Assembly: GCA_017394865.1 (NCBI GenBank) | Contig: JAFPWT010000001.1 | Location: 1 to 64,000, forward strand | Source: Bacteroidales bacterium | Lineage (GTDB): Bacteria > Bacteroidota > Bacteroidia > Bacteroidales > F082 | Direction of reading: 5' to 3' | Length of the DNA stretch: 64,000 bases | Shown: piece by piece, positions 1-2,383 of the stretch | Layout: the number at the start of each line of letters is the position of its first letter | Position numbering within the stretch: the stretch's first letter is position 1 | Position numbers and translations under genes: made by a program | The notes under the pieces: generated by a model | What the model saw: the letters and a program-made list of their open reading frames with translations, nothing else | The model's database searches: none | Told to the model about the DNA's origin: nothing

Positions 1-927
1 CAAATCGGGGAAGAAGGTCTGTCCGCCAGGCATCTGCAACTCCATCTGTCGCCCCACATACGAAAAGCCCTTGCCCAACTCCATCAAGAAGCGCGTGACA
101 TTCGAAACAAGCGCATCCTCCAAGTCTTTCTCCTCGTACTCCTCGCTCATCGAGAGGAATCCGAAATGATAAGGGTCTTTCAGTATCTCCTTGGCCAACT
201 GACTCTGCGGAGCCGGAAGCGTGTGCTCAAAGTTGGTCACGGCTGCCCCTTGGCTGCCAAAGAGGTTGGCTGCCATCTGGCTTTCAAGTCGGCTGCGGCT
301 CCAGCCTTCTTCAGTCACCTTATTGATATAGAAAATGGCTTCGTCGAGGGTTTGGCATTTGGAAATAATGAGGACATGGTGAAACCAAGGTATTCTGCCA
401 AAAATATCAGGCATTTCCAATTGGTCAACAGCTTGCTGACCTTTTTCGTTTTCGTCCAATTGGCCAGCAACTTGCTGGCCTATTTTCAGATTTTCAATTT
501 GGCCAGCAAGTTGCTGGCTTTTTTCGTCAGCAGGTTGCTGACGAATTGCAGCACCTAATTCGTCACCAGCTTGGTGACCAATTTGGCCAACGGGTCGTTG
601 GCTTTTTGTAACTCGCTCATAATAAAACGAATACCACTGCTTCATGTATTTTACATTGGAATAGGAGAAACCCGTTTCATCGGGAAAGGCTTGGCGCATG
701 TCGAGGGCAAACTGTTTCACCACACCTGCGCCCCAGCGTTCTTCAGCACGAAGTGCCACCAAATCACGACCTACGCTCCAATAAAACTCAAGCATGGCAG
801 TGTTCACACGAACCGCCGCCTTGATTTGGCTTTGGCGGAAACGCTGCTTAATGTCGGCCATCCATTGCACATAGCCTTCATCGGCGGTCATCATGTCACG
901 GGATACGAATGTCGGTTTGTCGCTCAT
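1..927 (-). CDS. yhcG: YhcG-type PD-(D/E)XK nuclease (DUF1016), partial at 3' end
   Basis: The first 309 codons read openly from an ATG at 927 to the window edge. Residues 1-90 form the DUF1016 N-terminal helical domain (FYWSVGRDLVALRAEERWG; FSYSNVKYMKQWY). A Gln-rich linker made of repeated xQQxAxQ units follows at about 107-170, then the start of the nuclease domain (GRIPWFHH; FSYVGRQMELQMPGG). The visible sequence stops at FFPDL, the first acidic position of the PD-(D/E)XK site; the distal ExK residues lie outside the window. A TATATTTG promoter box at 951-958 sits just upstream, so the gene can be expressed separately from the WYL gene 42 bp upstream. Family members are poorly characterised and are often linked to restriction or mobile DNA; the biological role here is not shown. 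Confidence 0.88.
   Translation of the reverse strand, partial: MSDKPTFVSRDMMTADEGYVQWMADIKQRFRQSQIKAAVRVNTAMLEFYWSVGRDLVALRAEERWGAGVVKQFALDMRQAFPDETGFSYSNVKYMKQWYSFYYERVTKSQRPVGQIGHQAGDELGAAIRQQPADEKSQQLAGQIENLKIGQQVAGQLDENEKGQQAVDQLEMPDIFGRIPWFHHVLIISKCQTLDEAIFYINKVTEEGWSRSRLESQMAANLFGSQGAAVTNFEHTLPAPQSQLAKEILKDPYHFGFLSMSEEYEEKDLEDALVSNVTRFLMELGKGFSYVGRQMELQMPGGQTFFPDL
423..602. repeat. Six in-frame palindromes encoding the yhcG linker
   Basis: Six short palindromes lie inside the coding sequence: 423-441, 462-480, 501-518, 525-543, 562-578 and 586-602. Arms are 7-9 bases around a 1-3 base centre, for example GGCCAGCAA-C-TTGCTGGCC and GTCACCA-GCT-TGGTGAC. Centres are 39, 39, 24, 36 and 24 bases apart, all multiples of three, so the frame is kept. 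The arm sequence differs between units but both arms of a unit change together; the unit at 423-441 keeps pairing in the mRNA through one G-U pair. Confidence 0.9.
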
Positions 928-969: not shown

Positions 970-2031
970 TTACAGAGATTGGTAGGCTTGAAATTGTTTT
1001 GTCACTCGGTCGCGCACCTTCTGCTGGATGTCGGCAGGCGAGAGCACCAGCAGATCTTTTCCAAAAGAGGACAATTCGCGGATAAGCTCATAATTCTCTA
1101 TGCAGTCAACGGAGAAGAATGCGCCTCCTTCGAGCATTGGGTATTGTTGACGCAATTCCATTTCCCTTTCCCCCTTGTAATGCCGCTGAGACTCATGCAA
1201 GGGTTTGGTGGCCACATAATCCTTAGAAAAATCACTCACCCAGAACATGATGGTCTGCAACGGATTGCCGTCAATGAGCGTCACCCCGATGATGTCCTCA
1301 AAGCGCTCGTTGAGGTCGCCATCGTATTCCTTATAACTACGGGAAGGCAAAGGGACAAACTTATCGATACGGTCGAGTGCAAACGACAATATTTTGCCAT
1401 CATTGTCGGCGGCCACTATAAGATACCAACGGCGGTTGTATTCTTTAAGCAGGTAGGGATGAACTATCAAATGACGATCCTCATCAGGCGCGTCAAATCG
1501 ATGGTAATACAATTCCACGACCTGTTTCTGCGCGATACAAGTGAAAAGTTCGCCAAGCAAGTTGGAATTCTCTAATGGATTCTTTGTGAATGACACTATC
1601 TGGCGGTCGGTTTTCACTTTGAGACTTTCCCGCAGCCTTTCCAATCCCTCAAGATTAGGCAGGCCGTCAAATTGCCCGAGTAGCGTGAAAGCCTCTCCAA
1701 GCAGGTGCTTCTCATCATCGGTAAGTTTCTGCGTAAATATTGAAAACGACGGGTCGGCATACCGGTGGCAACTTTTCTTGATGGTTTTGAGGGTCCGCTG
1801 GCTGACATCATCAACCTGATAATGCTCTATCTCCGCTAGGAAAGGGCCTTCGTTTTCTATATAATTAAGGTCAAGCTCGATGGTTCGACGACTGACTGGC
1901 TCTTGATTCATTTCGACCAATTCCTCATTGACAAGTCGAAGCAAATCCTCTGTAGAATAATGGTGATAGCGGTTGGCCAACAACTTGTCGAGGATGTAGT
2001 AGCGTGTTACGGCGTTTTTGTTTGCAGGCAT
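970..2031 (-). CDS. WYL-domain transcriptional regulator
   Basis: 353 residues from the ATG at 2031. Residues 1-70 form an N-terminal helix-turn-helix-like DNA-binding region (TRYYILDKLLANRYHHYS; SRRTIELDLNYIE). The WYL domain lies at about 155-215 with RRWYLI at 200-205, followed by a C-terminal extension. WYL domains bind nucleic-acid or nucleotide ligands and commonly regulate phage-defence and DNA-damage genes. An ATG at 2064 is in frame, but the TATCTTTG promoter box at 2054-2061 lies between it and 2031, so 2031 is preferred. The regulator sits directly upstream of, and codirectional with, the yhcG nuclease; that it controls yhcG is an inference. Confidence 0.85.
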   Translation of the reverse strand: MPANKNAVTRYYILDKLLANRYHHYSTEDLLRLVNEELVEMNQEPVSRRTIELDLNYIENEGPFLAEIEHYQVDDVSQRTLKTIKKSCHRYADPSFSIFTQKLTDDEKHLLGEAFTLLGQFDGLPNLEGLERLRESLKVKTDRQIVSFTKNPLENSNLLGELFTCIAQKQVVELYYHRFDAPDEDRHLIVHPYLLKEYNRRWYLIVAADNDGKILSFALDRIDKFVPLPSRSYKEYDGDLNERFEDIIGVTLIDGNPLQTIMFWVSDFSKDYVATKPLHESQRHYKGEREMELRQQYPMLEGGAFFSVDCIENYELIRELSSFGKDLLVLSPADIQQKVRDRVTKQFQAYQSL

Positions 2032-2053
2032 AAGAACTGTTTTTATTATGCCG

Positions 2054-2061
2054 CAAAGATA
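2054..2061 (-). promoter_or_regulatory. -7 promoter box of the WYL gene
   Basis: TATCTTTG on the minus strand, 23 bases before the chosen ATG at 2031. It excludes the upstream in-frame ATG at 2064 as the main start. Confidence 0.65.
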
Positions 2062-2119
2062 CAAATTAACTACGAAATCTTTTTTCGTAGATTTAAAATA
2101 CTGTTTTGATTTAAATAAA

Positions 2120-2189
2120 AACAGCCACTAAGTTGTTGGTCGATTTGACCAACAACTCGTTGACCTATTTCAACTTTTTTTTGGAAAAC
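2120..2189 (-). pseudogene. Decayed fragment of a yhcG linker
   Basis: The minus strand is open only from 2189 to 2073, yet positions 2180-2122 translate to EIGQRVVGQIDQQLSG. This matches the linker of the nearby yhcG (KIGQQVAGQLDE), including the approximately 24-base unit spacing and the palindromic nucleotide pattern. The same DNA forms an 11-bp perfect stem (2131-2141 with 2147-2157, loop of 5). No start codon or flanking yhcG domains remain. It looks like a remnant of a second or rearranged yhcG copy, separated from the intact gene by the WYL gene. Confidence 0.6.
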
Positions 2190-2214: not shown

Positions 2215-2338
2215 TGTCTTTGTAACGTCACTCAATGAGTTAGACTATCCGGGCAGAATCCCGAGAGGGCAAGACTTTATCGACACTACCCAAAATTACA
2301 AATTGAGCCGCCTTAACGACGGCTCTTTCTGGTTTTAA
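2215..2338 (+). other. Hairpin-rich intergenic stretch, possible small RNA or 42-codon ORF
   Basis: A promoter-like TGTCTTTG at 2215-2222 is followed by a palindrome at 2230-2240 (ACTCAATGAGT), a CGGG/CCCG hairpin at 2250-2263, and a terminator-like GAGCCG/CGGCTC stem at 2305-2325 ending in a T-rich tract. An overlapping ORF runs from ATG 2210 to TAA 2338 (42 codons, ending in LNDGSFWF). I cannot tell whether RNA or peptide is the product, and no clear -33 TTG is correctly placed. Confidence 0.3.
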
Positions 2339-2360
2339 ACGTATCGAATTCGATACGTTT
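2337..2360. terminator. 24-bp perfect palindrome 3' of the porin gene
   Basis: AAACGTATCGAA followed directly by its reverse complement. It lies 24 bases past the stop of the minus-strand porin gene. It may act as a transcript end or as a binding site for a dimeric protein; there is no long T-run on the minus strand. Confidence 0.4.
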
Positions 2361-2383
2361 AGAAAGCGATCGCCCCAATCCTT

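What the first reader, a model, noticed from the sequence alone, without database searches (positions are those of the whole stretch)
423..602. Palindromes with covarying arms inside a nuclease linker
Six palindromes encode the linker between the two domains of YhcG. The arm sequence differs from unit to unit (GGCCAGCAA, GTCAGCA, GTCACCA, GCCAACG, and so on), but both arms of a unit always change together, and one unit keeps pairing through a G-U. Spacing is always a multiple of three. Selection on amino acids (xQQxAxQ) alone does not require symmetrical arms. This suggests a DNA- or RNA-level role: a stem-loop in the message, a binding or recombination site, or units that spread as palindromic insertions, perhaps recognised by the nuclease itself.
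Basis: partly seen in the sequence, partly recalled or inferred. Interest (0 to 1): 0.72.

Follow-up and report, generated by a model that had tools for sequence, protein, structure and literature searches.

The report
Nuclease gene carrying its own address
A gene for a predicted DNA-cutting enzyme, found across many bacteria and in viral contigs, holds palindromes inside its own coding sequence whose bases change in step with the enzyme's predicted DNA-reading residues, so the enzyme likely recognises its own gene, probably to keep itself in check.

Summary
Six in-frame palindromes lie in the yhcG (DUF1016) gene at 419-607. The element, a 27-nt unit with 12-nt arms and a 3-nt centre, sits at this place in 125 of 136 DUF1016 genes examined, and also in E. 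coli K-12 yhcG and viral copies. Silent codon positions choose the pairing base in 90% of cases against 38% expected, so the constraint is on nucleic acid. It is not a dispersed repeat: it is nearly confined to yhcG. The array lies inside the N-terminal domain, which is predicted to fold like the palindrome-reading ParB/Noc domain. One residue of its predicted recognition helix predicts a base: Arg83 goes with G seven bases from the centre (29 of 29 genes; 3 of 96 without Arg; 9 independent pairs on a tree). ParB R173 contacts G at that distance from the parS dyad. E. coli alleles follow this only in part. Best reading: each palindrome is the binding site of the protein its own gene encodes, likely for self-control. 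What binding does, and why freely varying positions also stay symmetrical, is open.

The parts
1..927 (-). yhcG / DUF1016 gene (PF17761 + PF06250), cut off by the contig start
628..672 (-). codons of the predicted recognition helix region GFSYSNVKYMKQWYS (P0001 residues 86-100); the residue equivalent to L106 position 83 is Ser90, codon 658-660
   Evidence: motif, positions counted; helix assignment from the predicted model
581..607 (-). palindrome unit 1, AAAAAGCCAACGaccCGTTGGCCAAAT, 8/12 paired
557..583 (-). palindrome unit 2, AATTGGTCACCAagcTGGTGACGAATT, 11/12 paired
521..547 (-). palindrome unit 3, AATTCGTCAGCAaccTGCTGACGAAAA, 10/12 paired
497..523 (-). palindrome unit 4, AAAAAGCCAGCAactTGCTGGCCAAAT, 8/12 paired
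458..484 (-). palindrome unit 5, AATAGGCCAGCAagtTGCTGGCCAATT, 11/12 paired
419..445 (-). palindrome unit 6, AAAAGGTCAGCAagcTGTTGACCAATT, 9/12 paired, one G-T
16..192 (-). start of the PD-(D/E)XK nuclease domain (PF06250, P0001 residues 246-304)
970..2064 (-). WYL-domain regulator gene directly upstream, same strand; probably one operon with yhcG (inferred)
2131..2169 (.). degenerate unit-like palindrome upstream of the WYL gene; not seen at that place in 13 relatives

Best explanation
The palindromes are most likely the DNA binding sites of the very protein that this gene encodes: its N-terminal domain is predicted to fold like the ParB/Noc palindrome-reading domain, and the bases of the palindromes change together with that domain's predicted recognition residues. 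Shown: a 27-nt palindrome (12-nt arms, 3-nt centre, same reading-frame phase in 109 of 109 genes) is kept at nucleotide level, 18 to 24 codons from the codon of residue 83 in 25 of 28 divergent genes; Arg83 goes with G at the seventh base from the centre. Predicted: the fold of the N-domain, the contact, and the nuclease activity. Inferred: two protomers bind one palindrome, or one binds a hairpin arm, in the gene itself. The most probable use is self-restraint: bound protein blocks transcription through its own gene, so a solitary and readily exchanged nuclease gene carries its control element inside its reading frame, and reader and site move as one specificity cassette. The symmetry of positions that vary within one gene suggests that a hairpin or cruciform form, or arm-templated repair, adds to this.
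Against: No binding, cutting or expression was measured. E. coli follows the R83-G7 rule only in unit 1: allele A (K83) has C, G, G in units 1-3 and allele B (R83) has G, C in units 1-2; scored by best unit, as for the other genes, all three K83 alleles tested have G and count against the rule. Viral L198 (E83) has G7. Offset 4 varies within one gene as much as between genes (identity 0.38 against 0.34) and is still 92% paired, which a plain dimer operator does not require. Sequence-profile support for ParB kinship is weak (hhalign probability 12.6%, P 0.0023; with the loop columns taken out 4.8%, P 0.0083). Helical folds give middling Z easily. The R/K148-C3 link rests on 4 to 5 independent pairs. 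Aligned strictly, R83 falls one residue after the ParB R173 position. Autorepression itself has no direct evidence.
Confidence: 0.6

Rival explanations
1. The palindromes are own binding sites, but for cutting rather than repression: the nuclease nicks or cleaves its own gene at the extruded palindromes, and repair by recombination drives exchange of the recognition cassette and expansion of units.
For: In 32 close homologues, modules on either side of the array assort independently: all four combinations of left types 0/1 and right types 0/4, with outer segments alike. E. coli alleles differ in a block nt 241-420 that holds helix and palindromes. Of six E. coli loci opened because their match was short or divergent, two have a break beside an IS or transposase gene within unit 3 (nt 385 and about 406) and one has a deletion that removes units 2-3. 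The C-domain resembles NucS/EndoMS and Hjc among other nucleases.
Against: Two of the same six loci break elsewhere (nt 235 and 1060), and modules also recombine at borders without palindromes. Cutting one's own chromosome is costly.
Confidence: 0.2
2. The selected form is a stem-loop in the yhcG message (translation pause, RNase site or autoregulatory RNA).
For: Perfect 12-nt arms with a minimal 3-nt loop in many genes; pairing at positions without sequence conservation.
Against: G-U mismatches are rarer than A-C (15 against 36 collapsed events; 11 against 21 without the outermost pair); no Rfam match in 12 loci; the base-residue link mirrors parS contacts by a DNA-binding fold.
Confidence: 0.1
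3. No selection on symmetry as such: replication template switching between arms keeps copying one arm onto the other.
For: Known to homogenise inverted-repeat arms in coding DNA (PMC8604942, abstract); explains symmetry at offset 4.
Against: Would act on any inverted repeat, yet the loop has about 100 times the hairpin density of the rest of the gene and keeps them across phyla; does not predict the R83-G7 link. It may act on top of the binding-site function.
Confidence: 0.08
4. A mobile palindromic repeat (REP- or RPE-like) with in-frame copies in yhcG.
For: A few copies lie outside: L003, an array-only copy of three units in L054, a degenerate one at window 2131-2169.
Against: Of the 50 own-genome places listed for the 17-nt pattern, six are fully paired and five of these are in yhcG; the 27-nt pattern agrees; the Clostridium unit occurs twice in 6.1 Mb, both in yhcG; same codon phase in 109 of 109 genes.
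Confidence: 0.03

Closest known systems
ParB/Noc DNA-binding domain with parS/NBS; parS-359 inside the B. subtilis parB gene
   Same: Palindrome read by a helix-turn-helix domain; Arg to G at the 7th base from the dyad; a site inside the gene of its own reader (PMC7383237 and PMC4442127, passages).
Operators inside coding sequences (for example lac O2 in lacZ; recalled)
   Same: A regulatory site inside an open reading frame.
Rickettsia palindromic elements (PMC10969869 and PMC4316617, passages)
   Same: Palindromic DNA kept in frame inside protein-coding genes.
   Different: RPEs are about 100-150 bp, in unrelated genes; these are 27 nt and nearly confined to one gene family.
Type I restriction HsdS specificity subunits with linker repeats (recalled)
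   Same: Exchangeable recognition modules around a linker with variable repeat number.
   Different: No palindromic own-site is known to me there; no methyltransferase link tested here.
PDC-S02 phage-defence candidates (PADLOC)
   Same: DUF1016 proteins match these models.
   Different: A candidate label; I saw only listings of the papers that name it, none about a mechanism of this family by title or abstract start.

Membership tests
DUF1016 / YhcG family | PF17761 and PF06250 above cut-off | tested here: met
   (116 and 65.6 bits)
ParB/Noc family | ParB/Noc-type DNA-binding fold | tested here: met
ParB/Noc family | significant sequence-profile similarity | tested here: inconclusive
   hhalign P 0.0023, probability 12.6%; without loop columns P 0.0083, 4.8%; shallow ParB profile of 16 sequences
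ParB/Noc family | N-terminal ParB CTPase domain | tested here: not met
   Pfam scans of P0001 and of the N-terminal parts of five homologues show DUF1016_N and no ParB family; so not filed as a ParB
ParB/Noc family | base reading at 7th and 2nd base from the dyad by recognition helix and the GHA segment | tested here: inconclusive
   by covariation only: 83 with offset 7 is sharp; 117 and 134 with offset 2 are among many columns that score there, and 117 lies two residues before the ParB 201 position
REP / RAYT palindromes | many dispersed extragenic copies | tested here: not met
Rickettsia palindromic elements | 100-150 bp element in unrelated genes | tested here: not met
   27-nt unit, nearly only in yhcG
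Rfam RNA families | match at gathering score | tested here: not met
   12 loci, 0 matches
PD-(D/E)XK nucleases | fold and catalytic motif | tested here: met
   fold by model; motif pattern in 120 of 136 ORFs, several of the rest truncated; activity not testable here
PDC-S02 defence candidates | PADLOC model match | tested here: met
   4 of 4 proteins scanned; defence activity not testable here

The most novel reading that the evidence does not exclude
Probability: 0.33. Interest if true: 0.95.

Novelty: new variant of a known kind. Interest (0 to 1): 0.87.

Why it matters
The residue-base code makes it directly testable in E. coli K-12, where yhcG carries three such palindromes.

Tried and rejected
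Dispersed-repeat idea: tested by whole-genome patterns and dropped. In one search only the first 50 of 67 own-genome places were listed, so a few paired copies could be missing there; one search listed all 10 for the own genome. The reversed-pattern control is not a fair one, because coding bias differs.

Sense-RNA hairpin: mismatch classes gave no G-U preference.

Exchange at the palindromes: recombination between the flanking modules is real, but other borders recombine too, so I do not claim the palindromes as the exchange signal.

Intergenic copy upstream of the WYL gene as a conserved operator: 13 relatives read by eye show no such palindrome. L066:2340 looks by eye like an ordinary terminator; L059:5032 sits beside a stretch that matches a yhcG gene end.

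Catalytic-motif loss against palindrome loss: 15 of the 16 genes without my motif pattern still have a unit, but many are truncated or pattern misses, so nothing can be said.

Structure: no sequence match in the PDB at E up to 1. Holliday-junction resolvases and NucS appear among many PD-(D/E)XK folds; this does not show the substrate. No control with an unrelated helical domain was run for the ParB match.

Covariation controls: I also paired G7 with other variable columns on the tree; the output was cut. Those I could read mostly do not follow G7; column 69 follows in part (about 3 of 6 pairs).

Rows dropped or limits: of 172 HMM hits, 136 distinct ORFs of at least 230 aa were kept; one search used 135. 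Unit calls (271, 192 distinct 19-mers) fix the codon phase and may include palindromes formed between neighbouring units. Of 14 viral loci, L200's ORF lacks the N-domain; L191 and L192 have a loop unit only at 6 of 8 inner pairs, and L192's stronger palindrome lies at codon 45, elsewhere. For L191, L192 and L198 residue 83 and base 7 were read by eye; for L201 residue 83 was read by eye there and base 7 is.

Full report
What is there. The gene on the minus strand at 927-1 is yhcG/DUF1016 (PF17761 and PF06250), cut by the start of contig C11 of a 2.08 Mb draft genome. Its coding strand holds six palindromes, 27-mers at 581-607, 557-583, 521-547, 497-523, 458-484 and 419-445, with 8, 11, 10, 8, 11 and 9 of 12 pairs. 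The 65 named loci with a relative are mostly gut and rumen Bacteroidales.

How general it is. From all loci fetched by then (173) I took 136 distinct DUF1016 ORFs of at least 230 aa. Of 135 analysed, 109 have a perfect hairpin with arms of 7 or more and a 3-nt loop in the variable loop; 190 such hairpins lie in 16,932 nt of loop and 15 in 133,653 nt of the rest. Against 200 synonymous recodings of each loop, 109 of 135 genes have a longer stem than expected at p 0.05. With at least 7 of the inner 8 pairs required, 125 of 136 genes have a unit, as do 61 of 67 clusters at 60% protein identity. Distant cases: Phycisphaerae L104, Deltaproteobacteria L106 with two 12-nt perfect units, and Clostridium L108 with one in the loop and one near the gene's end. 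E. coli K-12 yhcG has three, one with 15-nt perfect arms. Of 14 viral-contig loci, the 13 with the N-domain show a unit in the loop, two of them only at a relaxed threshold.

Nucleic acid, not protein. In all 109 genes with arms of 7 or more, the centre falls on codon position 1. In that phase a silent third position faces a coding position of the other arm. Leaving each tested pair out of the selection, silent bases match their partner in 1140 of 1271 cases (90%); codon usage of the same genes predicts 489 (38%). Elsewhere in the genes it is 169 of 375 against 146. Related sequences make the nominal z of 41.9 too large, but not the contrast. Pairing holds at offsets 2 to 13 and is gone at 14 (47% against 41%); offset 1 is weak (57% against 41%). 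The unit is thus 27 nt, nine codons.

Change within one species. Some part of E. coli yhcG was found in 4417 of 5426 genomes. I read 10 alleles that span this part of the gene, plus one truncated within unit 3. Against K-12, the second class (L179, L187) is 86 to 100% alike per 60-nt window outside nt 241-420 and 58 to 71% inside. Unit 1 is AATTCGCCAGACagtGTCTGGCGAATT in one class and AATTGTGCAGACactGTCTGCACAATT in the other: both perfect, three paired changes. K-12 itself has one A-C mismatch there. Among unit pairs within one gene, differences at offsets 2-9 are two-sided and paired in 452 cells, one-sided in 214 and two-sided but unpaired in 39.

Not a dispersed repeat. The Clostridium unit occurs twice in 6.1 Mb at up to 3 mismatches, both in yhcG, and not in four other genomes. 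In the own genome the 27-nt pattern with up to 3 mismatches gives 10 places: the six units, one intergenic copy (C2:184657), a degenerate copy at window 2143-2169, and two poor matches.

Reader and site co-vary. I asked which protein column predicts each base of the best unit, leaving out columns 97-116, which the units encode. For offset 7 the answer is column 83 alone, in the recognition helix: z 17.1 against 4.9 for the next of 288 columns (72 representatives), and 10.3 against 4.3 for 297 columns with 28 representatives under 50% identity, where R83 has G in 15 of 15 and other residues in 0 of 13. Over all 125 genes it is 29 of 29 and 3 of 96; over all units, 37 of 40 and 9 of 231. On a quick tree of the C-terminal part of 90 genes, R83 changed 14 times; in 9 independent pairs on supported branches G7 went the same way in 8.8 and never the other way (median p 0.004). 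Among viral loci kept out of this, R has G in 4 of 4 and non-R lacks G in 8 of 9, the exception being L198. E. coli follows only in unit 1 (K83 with C, R83 with G); its units 2 and 3 do not, and by best unit the three K83 alleles tested go against the rule while the two R83 alleles keep it. Weaker links: residue 86 with offset 8 at 70% but not at 50% representatives, residue 148 (R or K) with C at offset 3 (54 of 56 against 0 of 34, but 4 to 5 independent pairs), 117 and 134 with offset 2; at offsets 2 and 3 many columns score high, so shared ancestry counts there.

Match with a solved case. In ParB-parS, R173 of the recognition helix bonds guanine 1, and residue 201 sets base 6; with the site TGTTTCAC-GTGAAACA these are the 7th and the 2nd base from the dyad (PMC7383237, passages; the counting is mine). 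DUF1016 shows the same distances, with the caveats that R83 aligns one residue after R173, that column 117 lies two residues before 201, and that the DUF1016 palindrome has an odd centre. In B. subtilis one parS lies within parB (PMC4442127, one passage).

How it likely works. Inferred: YhcG binds the palindromes in its own gene. Kosinski 2005 reports no obvious gene neighbours for the family; in this clade a WYL regulator gene lies upstream in 20 of the 65 named loci. Since the gene's modules recombine, an operator inside the frame would travel with it. Self-repression is my first choice, targeted cutting or recombination the second. Still unexplained: positions that are free within a gene, offset 4 above all, stay 92% paired. 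A hairpin or cruciform substrate, or template switching (PMC8604942, abstract), would explain it.

Novelty. I found no paper in the held library that links DUF1016 or YhcG with such palindromes. Searches: DUF1016 + palindrom (3 papers), DUF1016 alone (10 papers), YhcG with nuclease and PDDEXK (20 of 61 listed), yhcG with E. coli and DNA (30 of 32 listed), ParB with YhcG or PD-D (5 of 9 listed). I read listings, and passages of four of these papers. Most subscription papers and bioRxiv are not in that library. The odds for the best reading were lowered slightly (0.62 to 0.60) on recounting the E. coli alleles by best unit.

Noticed in passing
window 970-2064: A WYL-domain regulator gene lies directly upstream of yhcG on the same strand; a WYL gene lies upstream of yhcG in 20 of the 65 named loci and elsewhere in five more.
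   Followed up: partly
L054:530-624: An intergenic, array-only copy of three palindrome units, 83% identical to the yhcG loop of L061, with flanks that show no yhcG homology; how it got there is unexplained.
   Followed up: partly
L108 (Clostridium sp. C8-1-8), codons 97 and 353 of the ORF: The same palindrome stands in the loop and again near the end of the gene, the second with 16-nt perfect arms, so the two copies flank the nuclease domain.
   Followed up: partly
L175, L176, L180 (E. coli yhcG alleles): Of 4417 E. coli genomes with a yhcG match, 3310 have one place covering 80% of it; in loci opened, a break beside IS1 and a truncation before a transposase gene fall within unit 3, and an O157 allele lacks units 2-3 by an 80-nt deletion.
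   Followed up: partly
P0129: A 458-aa protein joins the start of an N6-methylase (PF02384) to a DUF1016 protein, as if the gene had entered an hsdM gene.
   Followed up: no
window 2336-2361: A perfect 12-nt-arm palindrome TAAACGTATCGA-at-TCGATACGTTTA in an intergenic stretch, unlike the yhcG units.
   Followed up: no
32 close yhcG homologues, L001 to L085: The segments left and right of the array assort independently between species while the gene's ends stay alike, as in exchangeable specificity modules.
   Followed up: partly
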